64,000 bases of DNA from an uncultured Acetobacterium sp. (lineage in GTDB: Bacteria > Bacillota > Clostridia > Eubacteriales > Eubacteriaceae): positions 2,444,736 to 2,508,735 of the forward strand of contig NZ_OY760905.1 in the NCBI RefSeq assembly GCF_963664135.1, given 5' to 3'. The position numbers and the translations under genes were made by a program. Shown here piece by piece: positions 12,434 to 48,745 of the stretch (position 1 is the stretch's first letter; each line of letters opens with the position of its first letter). The notes beneath the pieces were generated by a model. It was given only the letters and a program-made list of their open reading frames with translations, had not been told where the DNA came from and ran no database searches.

Positions 12434-12710
12434 ACCGCCAGGAGATGAGGACTCGCTGAAAAATTATACTATAGTAATGAAAGTATATCATACTCGAGAA
12501 TGATGATATAGCATAATGTTTAAGCGGTCTTTCTCTTTGCATGAAACCAAACACGCTGCTAGAATTTCAAATAGAACCGCTGTTATGCTATGACAGGCTC
12601 ATTTCTTGGTGGTGTTTACGGCTGTCATTGGTTGTTTAATGCTGCGATGCCGGTTCTTTAAATTACTGGTTGCCTGTAGGCTAATTTCTATGACATGAGA
12701 GACATTTCGT
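12434..12710. other. Divergent intergenic region with nested inverted repeats
   Basis: Between the response regulator and selO. TATATCAT (12484-12491) pairs with ATGATATA (12503-12510). A longer-range pair follows: ATAGCATAA with GCGGT near 12508-12528, against ACCGC with TTATGCTAT near 12572-12588. No open reading frame is credible here. The dyads could be operators for the two-component module or remnants of a repeat element; the promoter-bearing repeat for selO begins at its right end. Confidence 0.4.
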
Positions 12711-12739
12711 TTGTCAGGTCATCACAAATGTGGTAGACT
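12691..12739 (+). promoter_or_regulatory. Repeat-derived promoter of selO
   Basis: The dispersed repeat in reverse orientation (GACATTTCGTTTGTCAGG) supplies a -35 TTGTCA at 12711-12716. A 17-base spacer leads to TAGACT at 12734-12739, 87 bases before the selO ATG. The same arrangement recurs at 29745, 40709 and 48718. Confidence 0.65.
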
Positions 12740-12825
12740 GAAAAAAACAACACAAGACGAAATCAGAATTAGCATGACGTTTCAGGTCGCTTGTGACCTT
12801 GAGTGAAACGAAAGGAATGGTGATA

Positions 12826-14304
12826 ATGATGGAAAAAAATAATATTGGTTGGAATTTGGAAAATAGTTACGCTGAACTGCCGGAATTATTCTATACCCCG
12901 CTTAAATTAGAAACGGTCAGCGCTCCGAAACTGGTTATTTTGAATCAGCGCTTAGCAAAAGATCTTGGTTTGGATGCTGAAGCGCTAGTTAGTCAGGCCG
13001 GGATCAATATCTTAGCCGGTCAGGCCTTACCGGCAAATGCAAAACCAATCGCCCAGGCTTATGCCGGTCATCAATTTGGCTATTTTACGATGCTCGGTGA
13101 TGGTCGGGCAATGCTGATTGGCGAACAGATCACACCAGCCGGTGAGCGCTTTGATATCCAACTCAAAGGATCAGGAAAAACGCCTTATTCGCGCAGTGGC
13201 GATGGTAAAGCGGCGCTGGGACCGATGCTCAGGGAATATCTGATCAGTGAAGCGATGTATTATCTGGGCATTCCGACTTCCCGAAGTTTGGCGGTCGTGA
13301 CAACAGGCGATCCGGTGTATCGCGAAAAAACTCTCCAAGGGGCGATTTTAACGCGGGTGGCGGCTAGTCATATTCGGGTCGGCACCTTTGAATATGCAGC
13401 TCAGTGGGGGACTATCGCCGATGTCAAAGCCCTGGCCGATTATACCATTAACCGCCATTTCCCCTGGCTTCAGTCGGAACAAAACGTTTATCTTGGGTTA
13501 TTGGACGAAGTCATCAAAGCTCAGGCTTCCCTCATTGCGAAATGGCAGTTGGTGGGCTTTATTCATGGGGTCATGAATACCGATAATGTGTTCATCAGTG
13601 GCGAAACAATCGATTATGGTCCCTGTGCCTTTATGGATCACTATGATCCGGAAACGGTGTTTAGTTCCATTGATCTGCAGGGACGGTATGCCTATCGGAA
13701 TCAACCCAATATTGACTTGTGGAATTTGGCCCGCTTGGCCGAAACCCTGATTCCGTTAGTCGATGACAATCAGGAACAGGCGCTTAAATTAGTCGAAGAC
13801 TCACTGCGAAACTTTCCTTCATTGTTTCAGGTGGACTGGCTCCAGGGAATGCGCTTAAAACTGGGCATTACCAATGAAGAGCCGGAAGATGAGAAGCTGA
13901 TTGCCGATTTATTGGGACTAATGAAGCAGTATCAAGCCGATTATACCAATACCTTTGTTGATTTAACGCTCGATAAAATCCTTAATAAAACCCAGTCATC
14001 TGAATTGTATGAAAGTGATGCCTTTAAAAATTGGCTGGAACGATGGAAGGCCTGTTTGGAAAGACAGGAGCAAACCGATCAAGACATCAAGAAGTTAATG
14101 AAACAAGCGAATCCGGTGGTCATCCCAAGAAATTATCAGGTTGAAAAAGTCTTACAAGCAGCTAACGAACAGGATGATTTTAAGCCCTTGCAGCAATTAT
14201 TAGAAGTCCTTCAATCACCATACGATTACAATTCGCTTAATCAGCAATATATGACACCACCGGAACCGTCGAATCAGCCCTATAAAACGTATTGTGGGAC
14301 GTGA
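12826..14304 (+). CDS. selO: Protein adenylyltransferase SelO (YdiU family)
   Basis: A 493-residue pseudokinase-fold protein that transfers AMP to protein hydroxyl groups. Family landmarks: [18 protein letters not shown] near residue 75, [54 protein letters not shown] (the metal- and catalysis-related loop) and a short C-terminus ending YCGT. The C-terminal cysteine is encoded by TGT, so no selenocysteine is involved. The ATG at 12826 follows AAAGGAATGG; the ATG 3 bases later is equally possible. A captured repeat promoter lies upstream. The last 45 codons are duplicated in degenerate form at 5052-5199. Confidence 0.93.
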
Positions 14305-14389
14305 TTTTCAAATAAAGCTCGGTCGATTACTTTAAATCTTGGTACAAATGGAAATTCTAATACTATACCGGAATAATAGGAGGAATTAT

Positions 14390-14989
14390 ATGAATATAAA
14401 TAGTATATCTTCTGGATTTAACATCATGTCTTCAGAAAAAAGCAAGACAACATCCACCCCAAAAGTGCAGGAAGCTAGCGATTCATTAAAAGAAACCATT
14501 GTGGTTATGGCAAAGGAAGATGCCGTAAATGGGGTATATATGGGAGATCAATTTCGCACGCTACGAATGAGTGAGGTAAAAAAAGTTGCACCGAACAGGG
14601 CTGCCGCCATGGCAAAGGCGACATCAATTATGAACTCGGAAAATAATGCAGAGAGTCTAAAAAAAATGGAGGCTGCTGATTATAAGTGGATCCGGATGTT
14701 GCTGGGATTACCATATAAGGCTCAATTCGAAACAGGGCCATTAGGAACTGGCGCTCATGTTTTTGATGAAAATGGAGATGAAATCGCAACCTATACTCCA
14801 CAAGTAGGCTGGCAGACCCGTTCATCAAAGACTGAAAATACTAAATCGGATGAATTAAAGTTTATTTATTATGATGCTTATATTGAAGCCAGACATGCAA
14901 TGAAAAATGGGACTGTCTCAAACACGCAAAAATCTGCTGTGGTAGATACAGCTATACAGCAAAATGCAAGTTTGGATGTAAAGGTATAA
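14390..14989 (+). CDS. Unrecognised protein of 199 residues
   Basis: Begins MNINSISSGFNIMSSEKS after a clear AGGAGG 6 bases upstream. The protein is soluble, with a low-complexity serine/threonine/lysine-rich first 30 residues, then a mixed region with MAKEDAVNGVYMGDQFRTL, a helical segment rich in alanine and a GTGAHVFDENGDEIATYTP strand pair. It has no signal peptide or membrane helix, and I do not recognise a family. The style (short N-terminal linker, EARHAMKNG near the C-terminus) recalls uncharacterised clostridial proteins sometimes found near motility genes, but nothing here supports that role. It follows selO by 85 bases in the same direction and may share its transcript. Confidence 0.65.
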   Translation: MNINSISSGFNIMSSEKSKTTSTPKVQEASDSLKETIVVMAKEDAVNGVYMGDQFRTLRMSEVKKVAPNRAAAMAKATSIMNSENNAESLKKMEAADYKWIRMLLGLPYKAQFETGPLGTGAHVFDENGDEIATYTPQVGWQTRSSKTENTKSDELKFIYYDAYIEARHAMKNGTVSNTQKSAVVDTAIQQNASLDVKV

Positions 14990-15022
14990 CAATTTAGCTG
15001 GTTAAAGCTGAACTAATTCATA

Positions 15023-15064
15023 GTCAGTTTAAAATGATTCACCATCTCTTAGATGGGAACTGAC
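15023..15064. other. Nested hairpin before repeat copy e
   Basis: Outer arms GTCAGTT (15023-15029) and AACTGAC (15058-15064) enclose inner arms CCATCT and AGATGG with a three-base loop. It could end the selO transcript; there is no T-run. Confidence 0.45.
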
Positions 15065-15076
15065 GAGCGGGAGTAG

Positions 15077-15116
15077 CATGACAAACGAAAGATCCTCGCG
15101 TCATGCCCTCGTCAGG
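15077..15116 (+). repeat. Dispersed 40-bp REP-like repeat, copy e
   Basis: Aligns without gaps to copies at 21463 and 27333, sharing CATGACAAACGAAA, a TCC block and GTCATGCCCTCGTCA. It stands 43 bases before the TraB/TIKI-like start. An ATG inside it (15078) creates a spurious upstream extension of that gene. Confidence 0.8.
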
Positions 15117-15158
15117 AGAATGGCACAAATAAATTTGTATAATAGTGGAGGCTTTAGA

Positions 15159-15971
15159 ATGAATGCAGCAAAGAAGAAGCATAAACTCAGAAATAGGATA
15201 CTAATCGGACTGTTGATAATACTGTTGTTCGCTGTTAGCACACTTGGATTTTTGTGGAATCGACATCTAAATAAAAATAGTTTGGTTGCTTCATTTAATA
15301 CACCTCAGAATCAAACCGTGTATCTATTAGGAACCCTTCATGAATCACACTTTAATAATTTTTTGGGATATTCGATGGAAGATATTACGAGTGCGATTGC
15401 GAATATAAAACCAGATCGTGTTCTAATTGAAGCCAGAGAAGAGATGTATAATGAATACGGTGTAGTTGATGGTCCTGTTGATATGGCGGTTGTATATAGT
15501 TATTGCCTTGATAACGACATCAAAGTTGGAATGGTGGATTGGTGGGTGGTTGATAATGATTTCCAAGGAAATTCAACCAATGAGAAACGCGATGATAAAA
15601 TATCTGAAAATATTAACCTCAAATTGAATGATTTGCCGCCTGAAGCAACAATTCTGATAGTCTGTGGTTCTGGACATTTTCATGAGCAGACAGAACGGTT
15701 TATTACGAATGGCTTTGTAAGAAAGACGTTAACCAATAAGTCTGATATTTTTGTTAGTGAAAAAGACGGGTTTACCTATCCAGAAAGTTTGGAAGCTGTG
15801 TGGGAAAAACGGGCTTTTTTCTACGCCTATACACTTCCACAGATCATCGCAACTGATCCAAATCTAAGTGATGAAATCAAGGCACAGTTCACCGACGGAA
15901 ATCACGACAATTTTTATAACAGTCAAATGGTGTACTGCGAGTTGTTTAGAGGTAACAAACTTTACGAATAG
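15159..15971 (+). CDS. TraB/TIKI-superfamily protein, membrane-anchored
   Basis: A 270-residue protein with a basic N-terminus and one membrane helix (residues 17-35, ILIGLLIILLFAVSTLGFLW), then an extracytoplasmic domain. The motifs YLLGTLHESH near residue 60, RVLIEAREE near 90 and VCGSGHFHEQ near 175 fit the GxxH, ExR and GxxH pattern of the TraB/GumN/TIKI metalloprotease-like superfamily. The chemistry in bacteria is largely uncharacterised. GGAGG precedes the ATG and a TATAAT lies at 15138-15143. It is isolated between selO-linked genes and the second two-component module. Confidence 0.65.
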   Translation: MNAAKKKHKLRNRILIGLLIILLFAVSTLGFLWNRHLNKNSLVASFNTPQNQTVYLLGTLHESHFNNFLGYSMEDITSAIANIKPDRVLIEAREEMYNEYGVVDGPVDMAVVYSYCLDNDIKVGMVDWWVVDNDFQGNSTNEKRDDKISENINLKLNDLPPEATILIVCGSGHFHEQTERFITNGFVRKTLTNKSDIFVSEKDGFTYPESLEAVWEKRAFFYAYTLPQIIATDPNLSDEIKAQFTDGNHDNFYNSQMVYCELFRGNKLYE

Positions 15972-15987
15972 AATAAGCTGATGGCGC

Positions 15988-16007
15988 GTGTTAATCGTAA
16001 TTAACAC
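15988..16007. terminator. Short perfect hairpin
   Basis: GTGTTAAT and ATTAACAC separated by CGTA, 16 bases after the TraB/TIKI-like stop. No T-run follows, so termination is uncertain. Confidence 0.4.
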
Positions 16008-16300: not shown

Positions 16301-16317
16301 GCTTTTTTTGATTTGAA

Positions 16318-19654: not shown

Positions 19655-19662
19655 GAGATTCG

Positions 19663-21343: not shown

Positions 21344-21462
21344 TTATTATCACCATCCTTAACTTTAATGCTTCTATATTGTATTTCTTTTGACGGAAAT
21401 ATTCAAGTTGAGGTATAATACAAAAAAATACAGGAACGTGCCAGAGTCATGGAAAGAAAGCG

Positions 21463-21502
21463 CATGACAAACGAAACATCCCCGAGTCATATGTTTGTGG
21501 TG
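21463..21502 (+). repeat. Dispersed 40-bp REP-like repeat, copy f
   Basis: CATGACAAACGAAACATCCC followed by CGAGTCATATGTTTGTGGTG. Ungapped alignment with copies at 15077 and 27333. It lies in the divergent gap between the module 2 regulator and the ECF sigma gene. Confidence 0.82.
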
Positions 21503-22922: not shown

Positions 22923-23036
22923 ATGACTAAAGACGATTTTCTGACAGTTTCAGATTTTATCCGGTTTTTTTGAGGAAGAAAATCCGGATGAATGTCTGGA
23001 AATCAACTTAAAAAAAGATGGCGTGATTATAATAAG
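22923..23036 (+). pseudogene. Frameshifted gene fragment
   Basis: ATG at 22923 reads MTKDDFLTVSDFIRFF then TGA. Moving one frame gives EEENPDECLEINLKKDGVII, a protein-like continuation, which runs into the repeat hairpin at 23034. A poly-T run at the frameshift (TTTTTT) suggests slippage damage. The parent family is not recognised. Confidence 0.5.
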
Positions 23037-23098
23037 GGGACGTTTCATGACATGTGTTAAAAAACATGTTATGAAACGTCCCCTTGTCATATTTGTCA
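23034..23098. repeat. REP-like repeat arranged as a long hairpin, copy j
   Basis: Arms 23034-23055 and 23064-23085 pair over 22 positions with one G-T mismatch and an 8-base loop. Each arm holds GGGGACGTTTCAT or its complement, and the right side continues with TTGTCATATTTGTCAT, matching the right half of the dispersed 40-bp repeat. It may also end transcription from both sides. Confidence 0.75.
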
Positions 23099-26863: not shown

Positions 26864-27030
26864 TTTGAGTGTTGTGAATAGGAGCTGGTTTTATGGACAG
26901 AATCGAATGCTTTATAAAAGTAAGGGAGATTTAACAATGATATCAAGAACCGGCCATCTTTTTCAGAATCATGACATATAGGTGTCGTGTTACCTATGAT
27001 ATACTCATCCAAAATTCAGGAGGTATAAAA

Positions 27031-27294: not shown

Positions 27295-27297
27295 TCA

Positions 27298-27372
27298 CAT
27301 GACAAAGGGATGATTCGGATTGAGCATTCATTCATGGCAAACGAAACTTCCCTCTATCATGCCTTTGTCATG
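27298..27372 (+). repeat. Complete REP-like unit with 17-bp inverted ends, copy g
   Basis: CATGACAAAGGGATGAT at 27298-27314 pairs with ATCATGCCTTTGTCATG at 27356-27372 (16 of 17). Between them, from 27333, lies the shared core CATGGCAAACGAAACTTCCC. This is the most complete unit in the window. Confidence 0.82.
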
Positions 27373-27429
27373 TAGTGGCAGTGAAAATTTCCTATTTAAC
27401 TTAAATAAGAAATAAAGATTTACGAATTT

Positions 27430-29036: not shown

Positions 29037-29237
29037 TATCACTTATTTAAACAATAGTATTGAAGGAGAAAGCAGTGAAATCATGAAGCAATCGTATGAC
29101 GAGGAGACACTTCGTTTGTCAGAGCCTATGGTGCAGTGCACGGTTAAGCTCAACCTGTTCTGGTGTGCTTTGGTATCCCAGACTAATGATACCGCAAATG
29201 GCCAGCATGAAAGAGGACAGCATAAACACTGGAATCA
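29037..29237 (-). pseudogene. Remnant of MFS transporter 3' end (duplicate copy B)
   Basis: Matches 34880-35100, the downstream flank and the last ~35 codons of the MFS gene at 34988-36199. Shared runs include GTATGACGAGGAGAC, GGTTAAGCTCAACCTGTTC and GGACAGCATAAACAC. The match stops at about 29237, where sequence equivalent to 36737 begins, so roughly 1.64 kb present in the intact copy is missing. Confidence 0.85.
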
Positions 29238-29434
29238 AAGAGATCGTGCAACGAGGCATTGATCAACAAACTTTTAAAGGCACCGATGTTGAGTCATTGA
29301 GTTTTGCCGTCATGTCAATGTTGTCTGGCGCCACTCAGCTATGCTTAACCAGGCCACGGTTAAGCGGTGACGAATATGCAGCCTTGCACATCAATGCGAT
29401 CAAACTGCTTTTATCCGGAATAGCCACTGAATGA
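29238..29434 (+). pseudogene. Remnant of TetR regulator 3' end (duplicate copy B)
   Basis: Reads EIVQRGIDQQTFKGTDVESL and so on to a stop at 29434, matching the C-terminal 65 residues of the TetR protein at 36333-36932 with mostly synonymous changes. The DNA-binding part is absent. The frame is still open, and many differences fall at third codon positions, so the duplication may have diverged under selection before the deletion. Confidence 0.87.
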
Positions 29435-29462
29435 ACGATACTATAAATTAGAAATAATAGAT

Positions 29463-29487
29463 AAAAGCCCTTTCTTTGAGGGCTTTT
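29463..29487 (+). terminator. Terminator in duplicate copy B
   Basis: AAAAGCCC and GGGCTTTT arms, the counterpart of the TetR terminator at 36973-37000. Confidence 0.75.
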
Positions 29488-29680
29488 ATCTATTTGCCAG
29501 GCATTTATGCTGGATTATAGACATGCTTTTTATAGAAACCTCATTCTTATCGAAACAACAATATCAACTCAAAAATAAGTCAAGAAAAATCTGCTCAGTT
29601 TGTCGGTCACAGATTCATCGGGATTGCAGAATCCGACATGCGATACGATGATGGTTGAGCATGCATTGAAAGAAAGGACA
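29488..29680. repeat. Right part of duplicate copy B
   Basis: Continues to match 37001-37235 with gaps, including AGTCAAGAAAAAT and TTGAAAGAAAGGA. The 36-base inverted repeat at 37074-37109 in the intact copy has no counterpart here. Similarity ends where the REP-like element begins, at about 29681. Confidence 0.75.
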
Positions 29681-29773
29681 GGACAAATGGATACGTCACT
29701 TTGTCATACATTTGTCATGATTATAGGTCTTGGGAATCGTTTGTTTGTCATGCTATCAAAAGGGTAATATAGC
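29681..29773 (+). repeat. Inverted REP-like pair with outward promoter, copy c
   Basis: A forward unit (CACTTTGTCATACATTTGTCATG on its right side, read in two parts) is followed by a reverse unit (AATCGTTTGTTTGTCATGC). The reverse unit supplies TTGTCA at 29745-29750; 17 bases later TATAGC lies at 29768-29773. The RAYT relic and then the P-ATPase gene follow. Confidence 0.65.
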
Positions 29774-29802
29774 GCTATAAACTATAGGTGGTGAAATCAG
29801 AA

Positions 29803-29877
29803 ATGGTAAGACATGTACGGGTAAAAAGGCCAACTGGAATTTACCATGTAATGCTGAACGGACTGGTTGGAAGTTGA
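29803..29877 (+). pseudogene. Truncated REP-associated tyrosine transposase (RAYT) start
   Basis: AGGTGGTG followed by ATG and 24 codons: MVRHVRVKRPTGIYHVMLNG then LVGS and TGA. The basic MxRxxRxKxxxGIYHVMxxG start is the hallmark N-terminus of RAYT/Y1 transposases, which mobilise REP sequences. The catalytic HUH and tyrosine parts are missing. Its location next to an inverted repeat pair supports the link between the repeats and this enzyme class. Confidence 0.75.
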
Positions 29878-29951: not shown

Positions 29952-32612
29952 ATGATAAAACAAGAAAGTTTAAACGAAAATAATGTATTCCATACCATGG
30001 AGACTGAGAAATTATATGAATGTCTGGAAACCGGAAAATCTGGCTTGACTGAAACTGAGGCGGAAAGCAGAAGGCAGCTTTATGGCAGTAATAAGATCAA
30101 TAAAGGCAAAAAACGAACCCTAGTAAAAAAAATCTGGGAACAGCTTAATAACATTATGGTTTTGATTCTTTCAGTTGCGGCAATTATTGCATTCTTTGCT
30201 GGAGATATCAAAAGCACAATAATTATTATCTTTGTTATCATTATGAACACTATTCTTGGGTTAGTTCAAGAGGGCAAAGCGGAAAAAGCCATGGAAACCC
30301 TCCAAAGCATGTCCTCGCCTGAAGCAGAGGTATTACGTGATGATAAGGCTCGAATGATCAAGGCAGAAGAATTGACGATTGGAGACCTAGTCCTTCTGGA
30401 TGCAGGCGACCATATCCCAGCGGATTTAAGACTTATTGAGGCGATTAACCTAAAAATTGAAGAAGCATCCCTTACCGGAGAGTCGGTTCCGGTAGAAAAG
30501 GAAACCCAGCCTCTCGACAAGGGAGAAATAGTAATCGGCGATAGAAAAAACATGGCCTTTATGGGCAGCACCGTAACCTATGGCCGTGGCGCTGGTATTG
30601 TAACGGCTATTGGCATGGACACCGAAATGGGAAAGATTGCCGAATGCATTTCGGAAAACAACGAAAGTCAGAAAACGCCGCTTCAAATAAAGCTAGCGGA
30701 AATGAGTAAATATATTTCGATCATTATTGTAATTGCTTCCGTGGTGATCTTTATTACCGGTTTGCTGTGGGGCAGAAGCTTTTTTGATATGTTTCTCACC
30801 GCGGTAAGTCTTGCGGTTGCAGCTATTCCAGAAGGCCTTCCGGCCATCGTTACGATCGTTTTGGCATTGGGCGTCCAGAAGATGGCCCGGAAGAACACCA
30901 TCATACGAAAGCTCCCAGCGGTTGAAACACTTGGCAGTGCTGAAGTGATTTGCACGGATAAGACGGGCACACTCACAAAAAATGAAATGACGGTTGTAAA
31001 AGTATATCTCAACCAGGGTGTGTTGGAACCGGATCTAGTTCAGGTCGATCAAATAGCTGCCAAACGGAGTCTGGAAGGAATGCTTCTTTGCAATGATACA
31101 CGGGTGTCCGCAATGTCCGATGATTCAGAAGAAATGACAGGCGACCCGACAGAAACCGCCTTGGTTAAGTTTGCCCATCGGTTGAATTACAACAAGAATA
31201 ACATTGACACCATTATGCCAAGAGTAACAGAGATTCCGTTTGATTCTGATCGCAAGCTGATGACGACGGTCAACCGCCTCGAAAACCGGTACACATCCTA
31301 TACTAAAGGCGCACTGGATATCCTTCTTGATAAATGTAACCGGATATTGGATCATGATGTAATTAGAAACATTACGATTGAAGATCGCGAAATGATAGTG
31401 AAAGCAAACAGCTTGATGGCGAAAAATGCACTCAGGGTCATTGCTTTTGGTTATAAAGAGCTGGAGGCAATACCCCAGGAAAATCAAATAAATGCGCTGG
31501 AGGATGATCTTGTTTTTATCGGGTTTGTTGGAATGATCGATCCACCCAGACCGGAAGTCAGAGTCGCAGTCCAAAAATGCCGGGAAGCGGGAATAAAGCC
31601 GGTCATGATAACCGGCGACCATAAGGATACTGCGTCTGCAATTGCCCGAGAACTAGGGATTTTAAAGGACGGAGAAAGTGCCATTGAAGGAAGTGTTCTA
31701 CAGGGCATGAGTAACGCAGAACTCCTTGAGAACGTAGAAAATTATTCAGTCTATGCCCGCGTATCGACGGAGCACAAAGTCAGAATTGTTAAGGCGTGGC
31801 AGGAAAAAGGTAAAATTACCGCCATGACAGGCGATGGCGTGAATGATGCTCCCGCATTGAAGTCGGCGGATATTGGCATCGGAATGGGTATTACCGGTTC
31901 CGATGTTGCCAAGGGTGTCTCAGATATGGTTCTGGCAGATGACAATTTCGCTACAATCGTTTCAGCTATTGAAGAAGGAAGAAAAATATATAGCAATATT
32001 AGGAAGGCTGTTCATTTTCTTTTATCGACCCATCTTGGCGAGGTAATAGCCCTGTTTATCGCCACAATGCTTAACTGGGTCATCCTATACCCAATTCATC
32101 TTCTGTGGGTAAACCTTATAATCGATACCTTTCCGGCGCTGGCTCTTGGGATGGAAAAGCCGGAGGAGAATATCATGCGTAAAAACCCGAGAAAATCAAA
32201 ACAGAATTTCTTTGCAGAGGGCCTAGGAGTAAATATCGTAAGTCAGGGTATGATTAAAGGGCTTTTGGTACTGACAGCCTATTATGTTGCCTTAAATATT
32301 CACTCCCAAGAAGTGGCAGTCACAACTGCTTTTGCGACACTTGGACTGGTTCAACTCTGCCATGCTTTTACCATTCGGTCAGAGACAAAGTCGATCTTGA
32401 AAATGGGCTTCTTTACCAATGCCCATCTCATTGTAGCGGTCGCCATTGCTGCGCTGCTTCAGGTAAGTGTAATTATTATACCGGCGTTTAATGAACTATT
32501 TAAAGTGAAACAACTTTATTGGGAAGAGTGGATTATTACGATAATAGCATCCATTGTTATCATTCCTATTGTAGAAATTCAGAAACGCTGGTTTGGCAAA
32601 AATCGGCACTGA
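29952..32612 (+). CDS. Cation-translocating P-type ATPase (Ca2+ type)
   Basis: An 886-residue membrane pump. An N-terminal cation-ATPase domain (GLTETEAESRRQLYGSN), the actuator motif TGES, the membrane helix 4 motif IPEGLPA, the phosphorylation site DKTGTLTKNEMT, the nucleotide-binding region with KGAL and the hinge GDGVNDAPALKSADIG are all intact. PEGLPA together with LWVNLIIDTFPALALG in helix 6 places it with P2A Ca2+ (or Na+) pumps such as PacL/PMR1. AAAGGAG lies before the ATG. Upstream is the repeat-borne promoter. It stands between two copies of a duplicated segment. Confidence 0.93.
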   Translation: MIKQESLNENNVFHTMETEKLYECLETGKSGLTETEAESRRQLYGSNKINKGKKRTLVKKIWEQLNNIMVLILSVAAIIAFFAGDIKSTIIIIFVIIMNTILGLVQEGKAEKAMETLQSMSSPEAEVLRDDKARMIKAEELTIGDLVLLDAGDHIPADLRLIEAINLKIEEASLTGESVPVEKETQPLDKGEIVIGDRKNMAFMGSTVTYGRGAGIVTAIGMDTEMGKIAECISENNESQKTPLQIKLAEMSKYISIIIVIASVVIFITGLLWGRSFFDMFLTAVSLAVAAIPEGLPAIVTIVLALGVQKMARKNTIIRKLPAVETLGSAEVICTDKTGTLTKNEMTVVKVYLNQGVLEPDLVQVDQIAAKRSLEGMLLCNDTRVSAMSDDSEEMTGDPTETALVKFAHRLNYNKNNIDTIMPRVTEIPFDSDRKLMTTVNRLENRYTSYTKGALDILLDKCNRILDHDVIRNITIEDREMIVKANSLMAKNALRVIAFGYKELEAIPQENQINALEDDLVFIGFVGMIDPPRPEVRVAVQKCREAGIKPVMITGDHKDTASAIARELGILKDGESAIEGSVLQGMSNAELLENVENYSVYARVSTEHKVRIVKAWQEKGKITAMTGDGVNDAPALKSADIGIGMGITGSDVAKGVSDMVLADDNFATIVSAIEEGRKIYSNIRKAVHFLLSTHLGEVIALFIATMLNWVILYPIHLLWVNLIIDTFPALALGMEKPEENIMRKNPRKSKQNFFAEGLGVNIVSQGMIKGLLVLTAYYVALNIHSQEVAVTTAFATLGLVQLCHAFTIRSETKSILKMGFFTNAHLIVAVAIAALLQVSVIIIPAFNELFKVKQLYWEEWIITIIASIVIIPIVEIQKRWFGKNRH

Positions 32613-34879: not shown

Positions 34880-34987
34880 CATACCTTTTTTTGTTTTCAC
34901 TTGTTTGTGTAACCAATAGGATTGAAGCAGAAAAAAGTGAAATCATCACGCAATTGTATGACGAGGAGACGCTTCATTTGTTGGAAC

Positions 34988-36199
34988 CTACGGCGTGCGG
35001 TTAAGCTCAACCTGTTCAGGTGCGCTTTGGTATCCCAGGCTAATGATGCCGCAAATGACCAGCATGAAGGCGGACAGCATAAACACCGAAATCAGAGAGA
35101 GCTGTTCGATTAAAATACCGGACAATGCGGTGCCGATCAGAATGCCACCAATCATCAGCGGCGTGATCAGCCCGTTGATTCTGCCGATATAATCTTCCTG
35201 AACCGTTTTAATCAATGGCGCACTGATCGCGACCTGAACAAAAGCGATGATTAAGCCGGATATAAGATAGAGTGTCGCTGTCAGAACCACCATTGTGGAT
35301 AACGCTTCAGCGATTGTCACAGCGGCAAAAGCGATCATGCTAAAAAACAAGATCGTTCTGGTTCGATATTTACTGACGATTGACATGGAGATAATTGCGC
35401 CAGCAAGCAGCCCGATCCCGGATAGCGAATAGAACCATTGGAGGCTTTCTTTTTCAAGACCCAGTCGATCGGTCAGGATAAAAATGGTTAGCGGTTGAAT
35501 TAGACCCTGGGCAAAGCCAAACAGTCCTAACAATGAACAGAGCACCGTCAACCCTTTATCATTGTGGATATAGACCAGGCCCTCCTTCATTTGGGATAAC
35601 AGACTTGGCCTGATATAATCGGTATTTCTGGGGCTTGCCGGTAATAAAAATTGTATCAGCGAGGAACATAAAAACAGAACGGCGATGATTGTCAGCGAAA
35701 GGGTAATCCCGATGCTTTGATAGAGTAATGTGCCAATAATCGGGCCAATTATAATGTATAGAGATTGCAGACCCTGAGATAGTGAAATCGCCGGGGTTAC
35801 GAGTGTGGTATCAATATTTCGTTTGAACATGATTGCCGATGAAGGGACTGAAAACTGGCTTACCATTGAAGAAACGAGGGTGGCGGCAAAAACTGTTTGC
35901 CATAACCCTTGATTGATTAACAAAAGAATCACGACTACCGAAATACTGCTTAAGAAGTCCCCGGCAATCATGGTATGCTTGGGATTCCACTTATCGGCCA
36001 GGGTACCGCCTAGATAGGAAAACACAAAGATGGGCAGATATTCAAAAATTGTAATCAATGATATAGCAATGGGATTTGCATTTGTTTTTTCAATGACAAA
36101 GAATAGCACTGCCATGTTTCGGATCCAGATACATAGCTGTTGAATTGCATCGGTGGTCATAATAATTCGAAATACCTTGTTTTGAAATAATTCTTTCAT
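34988..36199 (-). CDS. MFS transporter (intact duplicate copy A)
   Basis: A 403-residue membrane protein with about 12 helices and the loop 2-3 motif GGTLADKWNPKH. The pattern resembles the MFS_3/enterobactin-exporter and macrolide-efflux-like group. It is divergent from the TetR regulator at 36333, with a 14-bp tandem repeat between them, so it is probably an inducible drug exporter. The 3' end of this gene is repeated at 29037-29237. Confidence 0.9.
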   Translation of the reverse strand: MKELFQNKVFRIIMTTDAIQQLCIWIRNMAVLFFVIEKTNANPIAISLITIFEYLPIFVFSYLGGTLADKWNPKHTMIAGDFLSSISVVVILLLINQGLWQTVFAATLVSSMVSQFSVPSSAIMFKRNIDTTLVTPAISLSQGLQSLYIIIGPIIGTLLYQSIGITLSLTIIAVLFLCSSLIQFLLPASPRNTDYIRPSLLSQMKEGLVYIHNDKGLTVLCSLLGLFGFAQGLIQPLTIFILTDRLGLEKESLQWFYSLSGIGLLAGAIISMSIVSKYRTRTILFFSMIAFAAVTIAEALSTMVVLTATLYLISGLIIAFVQVAISAPLIKTVQEDYIGRINGLITPLMIGGILIGTALSGILIEQLSLISVFMLSAFMLVICGIISLGYQSAPEQVELNRTP

Positions 36200-36255
36200 T
36201 ACGAACTTCCTTTCTTTGTTACGTGTATATTAGTTAGACTTTCTGTTATAATTGC

Positions 36256-36283
36256 TTTATAGAGTTTATTTTATACAGTTTAT
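36256..36283. promoter_or_regulatory. Tandem 14-bp repeat, candidate TetR operator
   Basis: TTTATAGAGTTTAT directly followed by TTTATACAGTTTAT, one mismatch, between the divergent MFS and TetR genes. A TATAAT lies just upstream at 36247-36252. Confidence 0.6.
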
Positions 36284-36332
36284 TAAATTATCAAGAAAAG
36301 GATCCTTGGACAGGGTCTTTATGGAGGACATT

Positions 36333-36932
36333 GTGTCAAGAAACCGACTACCAGCCAATGAAGCTAAAGCATTTATTTTATCCCATGCGCGCACGTTATT
36401 CATAGATAAAGGCTATGATAGAGCCACAATGGACGATCTATGCCAATTAACATCGATGAGTAAAGGCAATATCTATCATCACTTTAAAAACAAAGAAGAT
36501 ATTTACCTGCAACTGCTCAACCTTCACATAACCGAACTGACCAACCGCTGGCTTAATCCAGAATTTCAATCGATGCCGCCAACCGACCAGTTGATAGCCC
36601 TGGCAGATCACTATGGCAGAGACTGTGAAAACCCGTTGCTCAGTTCGGCCATAGAATTCGCCAATACCGTCGCAAATGACTCCGACGTGTTACCGGTGAT
36701 CATGGAGATGTTTGAGCTAATATCAAATAGTGTTAAAGAGATCGTACAGCGAGGCGTTGATCAACAGATCTTTAAGGGTGCCGATGTTGAGTCGATGAGT
36801 TTTGCCGTCATGTCGATGTTATCGGGAGCCACCCAACTATGCCTAACCATGCCACATTTAAGCGGAGACGAATATGCAGCCTTGCATGTCAATGCAATCA
36901 AACTGCTATTATCCGGAATAGCCGCCGAATGA
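36333..36932 (+). CDS. TetR-family regulator of the MFS transporter
   Basis: A 199-residue regulator with the helix-turn-helix HARTLFIDKGYDRATMDDLCQLTSMSKGNIYHHFKNK. The GTG at 36333 is chosen because GGAGG lies 5 bases before it; upstream in-frame starts would place the gene over the operator-like repeat. The C-terminal 65 residues are duplicated at 29238-29434. A strong terminator follows. Confidence 0.87.
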   Translation: MSRNRLPANEAKAFILSHARTLFIDKGYDRATMDDLCQLTSMSKGNIYHHFKNKEDIYLQLLNLHITELTNRWLNPEFQSMPPTDQLIALADHYGRDCENPLLSSAIEFANTVANDSDVLPVIMEMFELISNSVKEIVQRGVDQQIFKGADVESMSFAVMSMLSGATQLCLTMPHLSGDEYAALHVNAIKLLLSGIAAE

Positions 36933-36972
36933 GTCACGCTATCATTTATCTTATAAATTAATATTGATCGAT

Positions 36973-37000
36973 AAAAGCCCTCACTTTTTTGAGGGCTTTT
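36973..37000 (+). terminator. Terminator after TetR gene
   Basis: AAAAGCCCTCA and TGAGGGCTTTT arms with a short loop and T-run. Confidence 0.88.
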
Positions 37001-37073
37001 TATCTATTGACCGAGTACGGATACTGGAATACAGCTATGCTTTTCATAGAAACCTCCTTCAAATAGGAATGAA

Positions 37074-37109
37074 AATAGCACTACAGACTAAGCAGTCGGT
37101 AGTGCTATT
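37074..37109. repeat. Inverted repeat absent from duplicate copy B
   Basis: AATAGCACTAC (37074-37084) and GTAGTGCTATT (37099-37109). The corresponding place in the other copy lacks it, so it was inserted in one copy or lost from the other. Confidence 0.65.
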
Positions 37110-37128
37110 ATATATCAACTCAAACATA

Positions 37129-37200
37129 AGTCAAGAAAAATTTGCGCAGGTTATTGATCACACTTTACTTGGGGGTGCAGAACCCGGCATGCTATATGAT
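37129..37200 (+). pseudogene. DeoC-like fragment
   Basis: Reads SQEKFAQVIDHTLLGGAEPG. The segment ahead of GGAEPG resembles the start of deoxyribose-phosphate aldolase (xxxxIDHTLLKPxA). Nothing further of that enzyme follows, and the equivalent part of copy B is more degraded. The similarity is short, so the identity is tentative. Confidence 0.4.
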
Positions 37201-37335
37201 GTTGACGGAACAGATATTGAAAGAAAGGATATGAACTTCCCGTCATCATTCCTTTGGATAAATCGGGATCATTTCTGCTTGTTTCTCCGTTCATGGTTTA
37301 GCCGTATAGAATCCCTTGAAATTAATTGCGTTTGA

Positions 37336-40596: not shown

Positions 40597-40694
40597 ACAA
40601 CTCACGCTCCTTTTCTCTAAATAAGTAACAATTAAACTTTCGATTAAAATTATAATATCATATCTTTCAGCCCATTTCCATTGCTTATATAACA

Positions 40695-40737
40695 CAGGGA
40701 CGTTTGCTTTGTCAGGCTATCAAAAGTGTGATATATT
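40695..40737 (+). promoter_or_regulatory. Repeat-derived promoter of the DUF523/DUF1722 gene
   Basis: CAGGGACGTTTGCTTTGTCAGG belongs to the dispersed family (read in two parts). TTGTCA 40709-40714, 17-base spacer sharing CTATCAAAAG with copy c, TATATT 40732-40737, and the ATG 28 bases on. Confidence 0.75.
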
Positions 40738-40764
40738 TGGTAAAAACAACAGGAAGTGAAAAAA

Positions 40765-41745
40765 ATGGAAAAGAAACAAAGGCCTCAAGTTGTTGTCAGC
40801 AAATGTATGGGTTTTGATGCCTGTCGCTATAATGGGCAGACACTTCCAGACAAGTTTGTTGAAAAGTTGAAAGATTATGTGGATTACCACCCGGTTTGTG
40901 CGGAAGTGGAAATTGGCTTGGGTGTACCGAGAAATCCCATTCGATTGGTGATGGAAGATGAAAAAACGGTTTTGTATCAACCCGCCACCGATACCGAATA
41001 TACTCAGGAGATGATCGCCTTCTCGCAGAACTATTTAGACAGTCTAAAAGCAGTGGATGGTTTTATCCTAAAAGGACGATCCCCGTCTTGCGGAACCAAG
41101 GATGTTAAAATTTATTTGGGAAAAGTCAAAGCGACCAGTTCCATCAAAGGACAGGGGATATTTGCCGCCCAGGCGTTTCAACATTATCCTTATGCGGCCA
41201 TTGAAGAAGAGGGGCGGTTGACCAATTTCAGGATACGGGAGCATTTTCTAACAAAATTATATACCATGTGCAGCTATCGTGAAGTGGAAAAAACAGCAAT
41301 CATGGCAGATCTGGTTAAATTCCAAGCGAACAATAAGTACTTACTGATGGCTTATAGTCAGAAAGAACAAAAAGCTCTGGGGCGGATCGTTGCAAATCAC
41401 GAAAAATTATCAGTAGATCAAGTCATTAGTAACTATAAAGAACATCTGGGGATTGCTTTTTCCAAAATTCCCCGACAAAGTAACTTTATTAATGTGATGA
41501 TGCACATATTTGGCTATTTTTCAAAATATCTTTCAAGTGATGAAAAGGCCTTTATTCTAGACAGCTTTGAAAAATATCGGAGTGGGAAAATACCCTTAAG
41601 CGTGCCACTTAATGTGCTCAAAATCTATGTCATCCGCTACAATGATGCTTATCTTCTGGAACAAACCATTTGGGCACCATTTCCCGAAGAATTGATGGAT
41701 ATCAGTGATTCGGGAAAAATGGAAGATATCAGTAGGAAGGCGTAG
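40765..41745 (+). CDS. DUF523 and DUF1722 protein (YbgA type)
   Basis: A 326-residue protein. Residues 1-150 are DUF523 (VVVSKCMGFDACRYNGQ, CAEVEIGLGVPRNPIRLV, GFILKGRSPSCG), with conserved cysteines suggesting metal binding or a redox role. The rest is DUF1722 (YREVEKTAIMADLVKFQANNKYLLMAYSQ, read in parts). Such fusions occur near DNA photolyase genes in other bacteria, but none is adjacent here. Function unknown. AGGAAG before the ATG. The promoter lies in the dispersed repeat. Confidence 0.87.
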   Translation: MEKKQRPQVVVSKCMGFDACRYNGQTLPDKFVEKLKDYVDYHPVCAEVEIGLGVPRNPIRLVMEDEKTVLYQPATDTEYTQEMIAFSQNYLDSLKAVDGFILKGRSPSCGTKDVKIYLGKVKATSSIKGQGIFAAQAFQHYPYAAIEEEGRLTNFRIREHFLTKLYTMCSYREVEKTAIMADLVKFQANNKYLLMAYSQKEQKALGRIVANHEKLSVDQVISNYKEHLGIAFSKIPRQSNFINVMMHIFGYFSKYLSSDEKAFILDSFEKYRSGKIPLSVPLNVLKIYVIRYNDAYLLEQTIWAPFPEELMDISDSGKMEDISRKA

Positions 41746-45279: not shown

Positions 45280-45316
45280 CTATATTATCACGTCATTGTT
45301 TCCTTGTCAACAATAA

Positions 45317-45369
45317 AAAGAGGGCGGTACCATCCACTGATTTCTCAGTGTTTTGATACCGCCCTCTTT
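45317..45369. terminator. Terminator of the ABC/MarR region
   Basis: Perfect 13-bp arms AAAGAGGGCGGTA and TACCGCCCTCTTT, 28-base loop, 20 bases beyond the MarR stop on the minus strand. Confidence 0.85.
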
Positions 45370-45389
45370 AGGCTTTTTGATATAAATCA

Positions 45390-45875
45390 TTATTCAAGAT
45401 CATTTCGATTGGTTATCTCGACACCTTGCTTCTTTATTTCTGTATCCAAATGCTTACGATACTTTTCCATGAAGCTAAGCATACTGTCAAATTGTGCTTC
45501 AGTTATTTCCTCAAAGACGGCCTTATCCCGCTCCTGAAACGCTTCGTGCAAATCCTCATGGATTTTGTTAATTGCGTTCCCTTGCTCTGTCAGCCTAAAA
45601 TAGATTTCTTTCTTATTATCCGGTTTCTGGTAGCTTTCGATAATGCCCTTTTCGATCATTTTCTTCGTTAGCTTACTGATGGCGCCCCTAGTCATATAAA
45701 AAGACTCCGCCAGTTTGGTCACGTTGGAATCGACATTGCCGCCAATGTATTCGATACAATGTACTTCAGAAGACGTATAACCTTTAAGGCTGTCTTCCAT
45801 CTTAAACTTATTAAGCCAAACCAATTTGTTGTATATATCCCTGAAACCGCTAATGATCTGTTCTTCTTTGTTCAT
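45390..45875 (-). CDS. MarR-family regulator
   Basis: A 161-residue winged-helix regulator (VTKLAESFYMTRGAISKLTKKMIEKGII, then KKEIYFRLTEQG). GGGAGG before the ATG at 45875 decides the start over one 66 bases upstream. It is 76 bases downstream of the ABC permease gene on the same strand and may belong to the PadR/DUF1048/ABC operon or regulate the lost MFS gene. Confidence 0.88.
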   Translation of the reverse strand: MNKEEQIISGFRDIYNKLVWLNKFKMEDSLKGYTSSEVHCIEYIGGNVDSNVTKLAESFYMTRGAISKLTKKMIEKGIIESYQKPDNKKEIYFRLTEQGNAINKIHEDLHEAFQERDKAVFEEITEAQFDSMLSFMEKYRKHLDTEIKKQGVEITNRNDLE

Positions 45876-45951
45876 GGCCTGTCCTCCCACCCGCTGGTGC
45901 ATTAACAATATTATAGTAAGCTTTTGTTTCGGTTGCAACAAGGTTAGCTTT

Positions 45952-46719
45952 TTATACCCGCTTTTTATATGCCCTCATGGCAAAGAAATAGGCCACGATC
46001 ATAATCCCGATACACCAGGTAAGGGCGATCCAAATGTCATTACCCACCGGCTGACCGGATAGAAGCGCCCGAATGGCTTCAACGATAGAAGTCACTGGCT
46101 GGTTGTCGGCAAAGACACGGACACCCGACGGCATTGATTCCGTTGGCACAAAGGCTGAACTGATAAATGGCAGGAAGATAATCGGATAGGAAAAGGCGCC
46201 GGCTCCGTCAACTGTTTTTGCGGATAATCCGGCAATCACGGCCACCCAGGATAAGGCTAGGGTAAACAACGTCAGGATCCCGGCAACCGCAAACCATGAC
46301 AGGATCCCCGCCGGGGAGCGGAAACCCATCATTAGGGCGACGGCAATAATGACAACAACCGAAATCGCATTAGATACCAGCGAGGAGAGCACATGTCCCC
46401 ATAGCACCGTGGAACGGGCAATGGGCATGGAGTGAAAACGCTCGAAGATGCCCCGCTGCATATCCATAAACAACCGGTAAGCAGTATAGGAGATGCCGCT
46501 GGCAATGGCGATCAGCAGGATGCCAGGCAGCAGGTAATTCACATAGTTGTCGGTACCGGTTTGAATGGCACCGCCGAATACATAGACAAACAGTAGCATA
46601 AAGGCAATCGGCATAATCGTAACCGTGATGATCGTGTCCATGCTGCGAAAAATATGGCGCATGGAACGTTCCAGCATCACGCTCATGTCGCTAAAAAAGT
46701 GTTTTTGGGCAGTTTCCAT
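45952..46719 (-). CDS. ABC-2 type permease
   Basis: A 255-residue protein with six helices and the ABC-2 pattern (RHIFRSMDTIITVTIMPIAFMLLFVYVFGG, and NQPVTSIVEAIRALLSGQPVG). It is of the DrrB/daunorubicin-exporter class and pairs with the ATPase gene 3 bases upstream. Confidence 0.9.
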   Translation of the reverse strand: METAQKHFFSDMSVMLERSMRHIFRSMDTIITVTIMPIAFMLLFVYVFGGAIQTGTDNYVNYLLPGILLIAIASGISYTAYRLFMDMQRGIFERFHSMPIARSTVLWGHVLSSLVSNAISVVVIIAVALMMGFRSPAGILSWFAVAGILTLFTLALSWVAVIAGLSAKTVDGAGAFSYPIIFLPFISSAFVPTESMPSGVRVFADNQPVTSIVEAIRALLSGQPVGNDIWIALTWCIGIMIVAYFFAMRAYKKRV

Positions 46720-46722
46720 TTA

Positions 46723-47478
46723 CTAGTCCTCCTTTTTGCCGATGATGGCAAGGAATATCTCTTCCAAAGTCGGTTGTTTTTCAACATACTCCAACTTCGC
46801 TGGCGGGAACAGCTGCTTCAGTTCATCGAGGGTACCGTTTGCGATAATCTTACCTTCATGCAAAATAGCAATTTGATCGGCAAGCTGTTCTGCTTCCTCC
46901 AGATACTGGGTGGTCAGCAGTACGGTCGTGCCGCCGCCAGCAAGTTCTTTGATAATCTTCCACACCTCAAGGCGCGCCTCGGGATCAAGTCCGGTGGTTG
47001 GTTCGTCGAGGAAAATAAGCTGCGGGATACCGACCAGGCTCATGGCGATATCGAGTCGGCGGTGCATCCCGCCCGAGTAGGTTGACACTCTGCGGTCGGC
47101 GGCGTCGGTCAGGCCAAAGCGATTCAGCAGATCGTCGGCAATCTGACGGGGATTGATGAGGTGTCGCAGCTTGGCGATCATGATGATGTTTTCGCGTCCG
47201 GTCAGAATCTCGTCCACCGCGGCAAATTGACCGGTCAGACTGATCGACTGCCGCACCATGTCGGGCTTTGCCGCGACATCGAAGCCATTTACAGTGGCGG
47301 TTCCGTGATCTTGTTTAAGCAGGGTGGTAAGGATTTTGACAATTGTTGTTTTGCCGGCGCCGTTGGAGCCGAGCAGGGCAAAAATACTGCCTTTTTCCAC
47401 CTCAAAATTAACGTTATTCAGAACCTGGAGCTGCTTGTAGGACTTTTGCAGTCCTTGCACTTCAATTGCTTTGGGCAT
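46723..47478 (-). CDS. ABC exporter ATPase (DrrA type)
   Basis: A 251-residue ATPase: Walker A GSNGAGKTT, signature YSGGMHRRLDIAMSL, Walker B LIFLDEPTTGLDP, LLTTQYLEEAEQ with glutamine in place of the usual switch histidine, as is common in DrrA-type exporters. Coupled to the ABC-2 permease. With two DUF1048 genes and a PadR regulator upstream it forms a regulated drug-export operon common in Firmicutes. Confidence 0.92.
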   Translation of the reverse strand: MPKAIEVQGLQKSYKQLQVLNNVNFEVEKGSIFALLGSNGAGKTTIVKILTTLLKQDHGTATVNGFDVAAKPDMVRQSISLTGQFAAVDEILTGRENIIMIAKLRHLINPRQIADDLLNRFGLTDAADRRVSTYSGGMHRRLDIAMSLVGIPQLIFLDEPTTGLDPEARLEVWKIIKELAGGGTTVLLTTQYLEEAEQLADQIAILHEGKIIANGTLDELKQLFPPAKLEYVEKQPTLEEIFLAIIGKKED

Positions 47479-47492
47479 CCTGGTAGTCTCCT

Positions 47493-47843
47493 TTAATTTA
47501 TTTTATCGATCGATTTTTTCATGGCTTGGTTAACTTTATGGTCAACCGATTCTTGATAGAGGTCAGCATATGTTTTTGAATCTTTGATGAGCTCGTCGCA
47601 GAAAGCGGCGACGTCACTGCCGGTCACTTCGAGCACGCCTTTTCCCAGGGCCACACCTTCGTCAAAAAGATCGACAATCCCGGATAGCAATTCTGTTCCT
47701 TCGGTTAACTCAACCGGGCCGACCTTAAAGAGATATTTTTGAATTTCTTTATAAACAATCTGATAATCCTGGGGGAGCGCTTTAACACGCGCCATGTGCG
47801 CGCGCCACTCTTTTTTACCTTCAATAATGTCTTGTATTCTCAT
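47493..47843 (-). CDS. DUF1048 protein (second copy)
   Basis: A 116-residue helical protein (MRIQDIIEGKKEWRAHMARVKALPQDYQIVYKEIQKYLF in parts). It shares with its neighbour the pattern LPxDYQ, a GV(L/V)xL(F/L)(D/E)E segment and GxDVAAFCDELI-type C-terminal half. DUF1048 proteins regularly accompany PadR regulators; role unknown. Confidence 0.87.
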   Translation of the reverse strand: MRIQDIIEGKKEWRAHMARVKALPQDYQIVYKEIQKYLFKVGPVELTEGTELLSGIVDLFDEGVALGKGVLEVTGSDVAAFCDELIKDSKTYADLYQESVDHKVNQAMKKSIDKIN

Positions 47844-47852
47844 TTTAGCCTC

Positions 47853-48200
47853 CTATTTAGCTAATTTTTTAGCAATATTATTGTTGAGTTGCTTACGCCA
47901 CTTGTCACGATAAGATGTGGCCCCTTCGTCGCCGACCAGGGCTGAACAGAAGCCTTTGATATCGTCACCCAAAACCTCCTGGACACTCTGACCGTCCGCC
48001 GCCGCTTCTTCAAGCAGGCCCAGTACACCGTCAAGAATTGGCATCAGGTTGCGACCGGTTAAATCGGAGTGGGGCCAGAGATTGGTTTTAATTTGTTCCC
48101 ATGCCGCCTGATAATCAGTCGGCAGCTTTTTGGCTCGCGACTCAAAAGCTTTAAATTCTTTAGTCATATCGCTGCCAGTGATTTGTTCCCAAAAATTCAT
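47853..48200 (-). CDS. DUF1048 protein (first copy)
   Basis: A 115-residue helical protein (MNFWEQITGSDMTKEFKAFE, KKLPTDYQAAWEQI, LGDDIKGFCSALVGD). The start overlaps the PadR stop by 1 base. Probably a tandem duplicate of the next gene, diverged well beyond simple similarity. Confidence 0.87.
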   Translation of the reverse strand: MNFWEQITGSDMTKEFKAFESRAKKLPTDYQAAWEQIKTNLWPHSDLTGRNLMPILDGVLGLLEEAAADGQSVQEVLGDDIKGFCSALVGDEGATSYRDKWRKQLNNNIAKKLAK

Positions 48201-48526
48201 TATTTATTCTCCTTTAACTCATTAATTTTTGCGGACACGAACGCCCATTTGTCCCAGAACTTCTGTAACTCCTCGCGCCCGGCGTCGTTAAGGACATAAA
48301 ATTTGCGGGGCGGCCCGATATCGGACGGCTTTTTTTCGATATCGACAAGGTTTTTCTTCTCAAGCCGCACCAAAATGGTATAGACGGTTCCATCCACAAC
48401 ATCTGCGAAGCCGAGTGCATTTAATCGCCGTGTGATTTGATAGCCATAGGTTTCGCCACCGCTAATAATTTCAAGGACACAGCCCTCAAGCAGGCCTTTA
48501 AACATTTCTGTTAGATTTTCCAGCAC
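48200..48526 (-). CDS. PadR-family regulator of the DUF1048/ABC operon
   Basis: A 108-residue compact PadR protein (LLEGCVLEIISGGETYGYQITRRLNALGFADVVDGTVYTILVRLEKKNLV in parts, then PPRKFYVLNDAGREELQKFW). The GTG at 48526 is preferred as GGAGGTGAT sits directly before it; an ATG 12 bases upstream would overlap that site. First gene of the operon and likely its repressor. Confidence 0.88.
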   Translation of the reverse strand: MLENLTEMFKGLLEGCVLEIISGGETYGYQITRRLNALGFADVVDGTVYTILVRLEKKNLVDIEKKPSDIGPPRKFYVLNDAGREELQKFWDKWAFVSAKINELKENK

Positions 48527-48552
48527 AATCACCTCCATGCTATTATGTATTA

Positions 48553-48584
48553 CTTACTACAGCTATATAGTAGCACGTAGTAGT
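48553..48584. promoter_or_regulatory. Cluster of TAGTA/TACTA elements, candidate PadR operator
   Basis: ACTTACTAC, ATAGTAG and GTAGTAG lie within 32 bases just upstream of the PadR start. They form an imperfect dyad of ACTAC and GTAGT half-sites, as PadR operators often do. Confidence 0.5.
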
Positions 48585-48708
48585 TGGTTTGTCAACCGCA
48601 GTTTTTTAAAAATTAATTTTTAAAACTAACAACATTACCCGCAAAAGATTGGCAATTAACAATTGTTCTTCTTATGCTGTCAGCTTCTTAAAGTAACCGG
48701 ATTAAGGA

Positions 48709-48745
48709 AGGTTTCATTTGTCATGGTATGAAAATATGATATACT
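48709..48745 (+). promoter_or_regulatory. Repeat-derived promoter of the DUF1801 gene
   Basis: GGTTTCATTTGTCATGGTATG gives TTGTCA at 48718-48723; after 16 bases comes a perfect TATACT at 48740-48745. A following CCGGTGGCGAAATCAC resembles the leader of the RAYT relic (AGGTGGTGAAATCAG). Confidence 0.75.

What the first reader, a model, noticed from the sequence alone, without database searches (positions are those of the whole stretch)
12691..48745. Repeat family donates a ready-made sigma-A promoter to four different genes
In copies at 12711, 29745, 40709 and 48718 the repeat ends in TTGTCA and is followed at 16-17 bp by TAGACT, TATAGC, TATATT or TATACT. The spacers share CTATCA/GTATGA-AAA sequence. 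Downstream in the same direction lie selO, the Ca2+-type ATPase, the DUF523/DUF1722 gene and the DUF1801 gene. This suggests that a transposon promoter, originally serving the RAYT gene, has been captured repeatedly. Copies at 15077, 21463, 27333 and 54014 have the core but no -10 in either direction.
Basis: partly seen in the sequence, partly recalled or inferred. Interest (0 to 1): 0.78.

Follow-up and report, generated by a model that had tools for sequence, protein, structure and literature searches.

The report
Transposase-gene promoters stranded upstream of genes
Four genes in this stretch of an Acetobacterium chromosome sit behind the broken-off front end of a small jumping gene, promoter included, and at one of them that front end has stayed intact in six related genomes, so the cell may well be using it.

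Summary
The repeat is the left end of a small RAYT-type element (Y1 transposase flanked by inverted repeats) of Acetobacterium. Full-length elements in the same chromosome carry, behind the repeat, TTGTCA-N17-TATACT, a ribosome site and the transposase ATG; the -35 box lies inside the terminal repeat. A model trained only on 10 RAYT leaders finds all four window copies in the whole genome (E 4e-12 to 1e-8). One copy still has 23 transposase codons; another joins the transposase ribosome site and ATGG to the DUF523/DUF1722 gene. At selO both hexamers are invariant in six genomes (12 of 12 columns; upstream DNA 63 of 91), moderate support for use; other genomes have degraded or lost them. Use is probable at DUF523/DUF1722, open at the ATPase and DUF1801 genes. 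No transcript was examined. Pointing at a gene proves nothing: intact elements and promoterless remnants do so too, probably because they insert in the replication direction. Promoter-like quality does not differ between copies close to genes (16 of 22) and others (11 of 16). Transposon-promoter capture is known; the REP-embedded, inward transposase promoter is a new variant.

The parts
12689..12778 (+). RAYT leader ahead of selO: terminal repeat, -35 12711-12716, -10 12734-12739
   Evidence: R1 model positions 4-91, 46.3 bits; genome-wide E 1.4e-11
12768..12831 (+). selO 5' untranslated block that also occurs, without a RAYT leader, ahead of other genes and in selO of other genomes
   Evidence: alignment A5 and model R2
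12829..14304 (+). selO (possible earlier starts at 12817 or 12793)
   Evidence: PF02696, E 3e-121; start aligned across genomes
29730..29871 (+). RAYT leader (-35 29745-29750, -10 29768-29773) plus RAYT codons 1-23 (29803-29871)
   Evidence: R1 10-100; blastn 137 columns, 78%; tblastn residues 1-23
29952..32612 (+). P-type cation ATPase gene
   Evidence: PF00122, PF00689 and others
40688..40771 (+). RAYT leader (-35 40709-40714, -10 40732-40737) running through the ribosome site into ATGG
   Evidence: R1 4-88, 48.2 bits
40765..41745 (+). DUF523/DUF1722 gene
   Evidence: PF04463 and PF08349
48702..48781 (+). RAYT leader, 16-bp spacer form (-35 48718-48723, -10 48740-48745)
   Evidence: R1 9-88, 37.1 bits
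48871..49329 (+). DUF1801 gene
   Evidence: PF08818
15074..15107 (-). bare terminal repeat, no -10
   Evidence: R1 2-35
21459..21491 (-). bare terminal repeat, no -10
   Evidence: R1 4-36
27332..27362 (-). bare terminal repeat, no -10
   Evidence: R1 3-33
53996..54039 (-). bare terminal repeat, no -10
   Evidence: R1 7-50
22929..23091 (+). RAYT interior remnant (22929-23027) followed by a dimer of inverted terminal repeats (23028-23091)
   Evidence: blastn 101 columns, 82%; inverted repeat I1; fold z -9.1

Best explanation
The repeat is the left terminal repeat of a small RAYT-type element of Acetobacterium. The transposase promoter begins inside that repeat (TTGTCA as -35), with a -10 (consensus TATACT, usually preceded by TG) 17 bp further on and then the transposase ribosome site and ATG (shown as sequence). 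Elements inserted ahead of genes, in the direction of replication; most of the transposase gene was lost, leaving repeat + promoter (+ ribosome site, + a few codons) before the next gene (present state shown; order of events inferred). At selO the hexamers are kept in six genomes, so this promoter most likely starts selO transcription there (inferred). At DUF523/DUF1722 the transposase promoter, ribosome site and ATGG are joined to the gene, which probably uses them (inferred). At the ATPase and DUF1801 genes the promoter points at the gene; use is not shown.
For: RAYT genes with this leader in the same genome and genus; all four copies found by a model trained without them; RAYT codons 1-23 behind 29745; exact junction at the start codon of the DUF523 gene, where none of nine other genomes' loci shows a leader at E up to 1 (for G001 only about 360 bp upstream were held); at selO 12 of 12 hexamer columns invariant in six genomes against 63 of 91 ungapped upstream columns; the genus's mapped housekeeping promoter is TTGACA, about 17 bp, extended TATAAT (passages of PMC6239172 and PMC8407422).
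Against: No transcription start was seen. The selO leader behind the -10 is as conserved (35 of 37 columns) as the hexamers, so selection may act on something else; the six genomes are about three lineages (with three representatives upstream invariance is 86 of 113), and fourfold sites (59-83%) are a poor yardstick because G016 and G017 are 98% identical upstream yet 59% at fourfold sites. Four selO genomes have degraded hexamers and five have no leader match. Promoter-like quality is the same in copies close ahead of genes (16 of 22) and others (11 of 16). Orientation towards genes is shared by promoterless remnants.
Confidence: 0.65

Rival explanations
1. The copies are inert RAYT debris. 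They face genes only because the element inserts in the replication direction, and the genes use other promoters; conservation at selO reflects an RNA leader or common recent ancestry.
For: Intact RAYTs (12 of 13 next genes) and C-terminal remnants (8 of 9) are also co-directional; strand follows dnaA position and GC skew; several genomes keep selO without an intact leader; no difference in promoter-like quality.
Against: All 12 hexamer columns invariant at selO; the DUF523 junction leaves no room for another promoter between the RAYT -10 and the ATG (27 bp); the -10 matches the RAYT consensus more often close ahead of genes, 111 of 132 cells, than elsewhere, 69 of 96, p 0.03.
Confidence: 0.27
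2. The copies are miniature mobile promoters: internally deleted elements (end + promoter + end) that moved as such and delivered a promoter, rather than decayed full-length insertions.
For: An internally deleted element with leader, residues 1-65 next to 203-250 and a right end exists (G001:C32). A 16-bp-spacer form recurs at 48718, in G013, G010 and G041 ahead of three gene families.
Against: No clear right end directly behind the window leaders; 29745 stops inside RAYT coding sequence. No empty target site was identified.
Confidence: 0.15
3. A host regulator's operator shared by four genes, unrelated to transposons (GTATCA-N6-TGATAC-like symmetry in the spacer).
For: Similar spacers in three of the four copies.
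Against: Homology continues into the ribosome site and transposase codons, and the same leader precedes RAYT genes; spacers vary most of all leader parts among RAYTs.
Confidence: 0.03

Closest known systems
RAYT / TnpA-REP elements with REP sequences (PMC2817692, PMC6006769, PMC8266576; passages seen)
   Same: Y1 (HUH) transposase gene flanked by two inverted terminal repeats, with solitary repeats scattered in the genome.
   Different: The repeats lack the GTAG-type head in the 8 elements checked; several gene copies and many remnants per genome, where RAYTs are described as single-copy and vertically inherited (passage of PMC8049555).
Insertion sequences that drive neighbouring genes by outward promoters or outward -35 boxes (PMC9208149, passages)
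   Same: A transposon-borne promoter reads into a neighbouring host gene.
   Different: There the promoter faces out of the element; here it is the inward transposase promoter, left over after the transposase gene was lost.
Mobile promoters (Matus-Garcia et al. 2012, van Passel et al. 2014; not held; known from recall and from citations in PMC9208149 and PMC8049555)
   Same: Related promoter sequences upstream of unrelated genes.
   Different: Here the parent element, the transposase it served and partly deleted forms are identified.
Proposals that REP/REPIN repeats act as promoters (PMC3733652, Discussion part 1 of 2 read; PMC8049555, passage)
   Same: A REP-type repeat contributes to transcription initiation.
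   Different: Those passages are speculation without a defined -35/-10; here hexamers are defined and tested by conservation.

Membership tests
RAYT (REP-associated tyrosine transposase) element | Y1/HUH transposase (PF01797) with H-x-H motif | tested here: met
   3 genes over the Pfam cut-off; HIH at residues 60-62
RAYT (REP-associated tyrosine transposase) element | gene flanked by two repeats in inverted orientation | tested here: met
   own elements: left end and inverted right end, 91% over 34 bp in RAYT2; left and right ends seen at 8 loci
RAYT (REP-associated tyrosine transposase) element | repeats with GTAG-type tetranucleotide head | tested here: not met
   no GT[AG]G or complement at 8 of 8 left ends; one GTGG some 20 bp beyond one right end. 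So RAYT-like, not a classical GTAG REP system
RAYT (REP-associated tyrosine transposase) element | transposase acts on its repeats | not testable with these tools
   needs biochemistry
Mobile/captured promoter | same promoter sequence at several loci ahead of unrelated genes | tested here: met
Mobile/captured promoter | spacing and hexamers kept | tested here: met
   16-17 bp in 52 of 55 non-RAYT leader copies of A3; at least 4 of 6 matches in both hexamers with right spacing in 16 of 22 close-ahead copies, one per gene family
Mobile/captured promoter | selection keeps it for the host gene | tested here: inconclusive
   selO hexamers 12 of 12 invariant against 63 of 91 upstream columns, but the rest of the leader is equally conserved; genus-wide difference weak
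Mobile/captured promoter | host gene is transcribed from it | not testable with these tools
   published start-site tables are supplements and could not be read here

The most novel reading that the evidence does not exclude
In Acetobacterium the RAYT family works as a promoter supplier: the -35 lies inside the transposon end and insertion follows the replication direction, so each insertion tends to face the next gene, and decay leaves repeat + promoter + ribosome site that genes adopt, repeatedly and in several species.
Probability: 0.3. Interest if true: 0.65.

Novelty: new variant of a known kind. Interest (0 to 1): 0.45.

Why it matters
It is a traceable case in which a transposase's own inward promoter may have become a host promoter, with parent element, partly deleted forms and gene junctions present in one genus. 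It also gives REP-type repeats a concrete possible role: the terminal repeat of this family carries a -35 box. Published start-site maps of A. bakii and A. woodii make the idea directly checkable.

Tried and rejected
Co-directionality as proof of capture. Leader copies faced the next gene in 32 of 41 non-RAYT gene clusters, bare repeats in 12 of 33, but intact RAYTs (12 of 13) and C-terminal RAYT remnants (8 of 9) did so too; strand follows replication, so I dropped the argument. One search left out RAYT genes, right ends of elements, leaders under 20 bits, repeats under 15 bits and copies without a gene on the fetched stretch; genes are simple open-frame calls, and the match list was cut off by the tool.

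Promoter quality. The -10 is better kept close ahead of genes (111 of 132 cells, 22 copies) than elsewhere (69 of 96, 16 copies; p 0.03) and the repeat tip shows the reverse (210 of 277, 175 of 206; p 0.02), but the -35 does not differ (122 of 132, 88 of 96) and neither does overall promoter-like quality (16 of 22, 11 of 16). These counts use alignment A3 only, not the 12 further leaders in A4. Three of its 55 non-RAYT leaders have a 19-31 bp spacing that the column display hides.

RNA structure. No Rfam match in the window at gathering scores. The selO 5' block has one compensatory pair among 8, too weak to call an RNA element. Of seven single-strand folds, only one right end and the 23028-23091 dimer fold well below shuffles.

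Distant RAYTs. Of 73 loci (L044-L116) 17 had a GGGACG-type end upstream under my pattern; 7 of 17 had a promoter-like pair with the -35 within 9 nt of it, 0.94 expected from shuffles. One of the 7 is A. bakii, already in the training set, and two are near-identical Pelosinus loci; 56 loci had no such end. Suggestive only.

Full report
What was checked. The window is bases 2444736-2508735 of a single 4.08-Mb contig of the genus Acetobacterium, judged by close RAYT relatives in named Acetobacterium records.

What the repeat is. Three Y1 transposase (PF01797) genes lie in this genome. Two of them, at 2414354 and 2418413 and 89% identical as proteins, have the repeat (ATGACA.GGGGACGTTTCGTTTGTCAT) upstream and an inverted copy behind the stop codon. 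Between repeat and ATG lie TTGTCA-N17-TATACT and a ribosome site. Ten RAYT leaders from Acetobacterium genomes (seven before open genes, three before broken ones) have TTGTCA in 9, TATACT in 8 and the 17-bp distance in all 10. So the -35 box is the inner edge of the transposon end.

The window copies are front ends of this element. A sequence-only model of those leaders (R1) was run on 19 genus genomes and finds all four window copies, E 4e-12 to 1e-8. By blastn, 29745 matches the element over 137 columns at 78% and keeps transposase codons 1-23; 12711 matches over 90 columns; 40709 over 74. 48718 is the weakest (46 columns, E 0.004 in a small database, but 1.1e-8 with R1). The other four copies match only the terminal repeat.

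selO. Fifteen of 19 genomes have selO. The leader has intact hexamers in six (G000, G041, G005, G013, G016, G017), one or both hexamers degraded in four (G001, G003, G012, G015), and gives no R1 match in five (G002, G004, G008, G010, G014), three of which may keep a trace around the old start codon, judged by eye. In the six, 12 of 12 hexamer columns are invariant, 13 of 17 in the spacer, 35 of 37 in the leader behind the -10, 43 of 52 in the 5' UTR and 63 of 91 ungapped columns upstream. The six represent about three lineages; with one representative each, hexamers stay 12 of 12 and upstream DNA is 86 of 113. I read this as an old insertion whose promoter is kept in one group and lost in others, with moderate confidence, since the transcribed part of the leader is equally conserved.

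DUF523/DUF1722. Orthologues (70-83% identical) occur in nine other genomes. None of their loci has a leader match at E up to 1; G015 has an antisense terminal repeat upstream (for G001 only about 360 bp upstream were held and its printed stretch was misplaced). In the window the transposase ribosome site and ATGG run directly into the gene, at the start codon seen in most orthologues.

ATPase and DUF1801. Neither has a close orthologue in the genus: best 51% and 66%. No conservation test is possible. Distances of about 180 and 125 bp from -10 to ATG allow use; nothing more is shown.

Genus-wide picture. Leaders lie ahead of many unrelated genes; in G041 one stands with an AGGAGG site directly before a gene starting MLNKAIEIAAIAH. 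Orientation is not informative. In the own genome all 13 leaders listed that reach past the -10 are oriented with replication, taking dnaA at 2.368 Mb and the GC skew as guides: 10 plus-strand to its right, 3 minus-strand to its left. Two weaker matches in L035 (18.0 and 16.6 bits) break the rule. In G010, 11 of 12 listed leaders are on one strand. A lagging-strand preference is described for IS200/IS605 relatives (passages of PMC6006769). Promoter-like quality does not separate copies close ahead of genes from others, although the -10 taken alone does weakly.

Literature. The housekeeping promoter of A. bakii and A. woodii from differential RNA sequencing is TTGACA, extended TATAAT, about 17 bp in A. 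bakii (passages). RAYTs are defined by flanking inverted REPs (PMC2817692, passages), met here; the GTAG-type head is not met. Promoter roles of REPs are raised as speculation (PMC3733652, Discussion part 1 read; PMC8049555, passage). A search for papers with both 'Acetobacterium' and 'RAYT' found none. A search for 'REP-associated tyrosine transposase' with 'promoter' found five: of two I saw passages or a section, of three only the listing; none appeared to describe this. These searches cover only the held library.

Verdict. Real and well explained in origin; ordinary in principle (a transposon promoter left before host genes), unusual in detail. Use is likely but unproven at selO, probable at DUF523/DUF1722, open at the other two.

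Noticed in passing
window 12768-12831; own genome 3415244 and 2421553; L332, L328, L329, L334-L336, L338, L344-L346, L349: A second dispersed leader family: a block like TTTCAGGnCGTTTTGTGCCTTGAGTGAAACGAAAGGAATGG precedes many unrelated genes in the genus (model R2: match in 17 of 19 genomes at E up to 0.1, most often selO; up to 10 in G004), several with a similar upstream stretch (TTATCCCTATGGCTATA). selO looks like a RAYT promoter placed before this block. No Rfam match at the block.
   Followed up: partly
own genome 2.41-2.58 Mb, window included: 14 of the 23 core-repeat matches with at most 2 mismatches cluster in this stretch, within about 210 kb of dnaA (2.368 Mb).
   Followed up: partly
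window 26945-26970: 26 bp identical to the middle of the RAYT2 coding sequence lie directly before the DUF3795 open frame, with terminal repeats behind it at 27297-27373.
   Followed up: partly
window 5052-5188 and 14170-14307: The 3' end of selO is duplicated about 9 kb upstream at 89-94% identity.
   Followed up: no
window 29043-29683 against 34905-37234: Several diverged duplicated blocks (77-90% identity) just upstream of the RAYT remnant at 29745.
   Followed up: no
G001:C32:35396-35871 (L191); G017:C52:122312-122580: Internally deleted RAYT elements with N-terminal residues next to C-terminal residues and a right end; the G001 one keeps its leader, the G017 one matches the leader only from behind the -10.
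   Followed up: no
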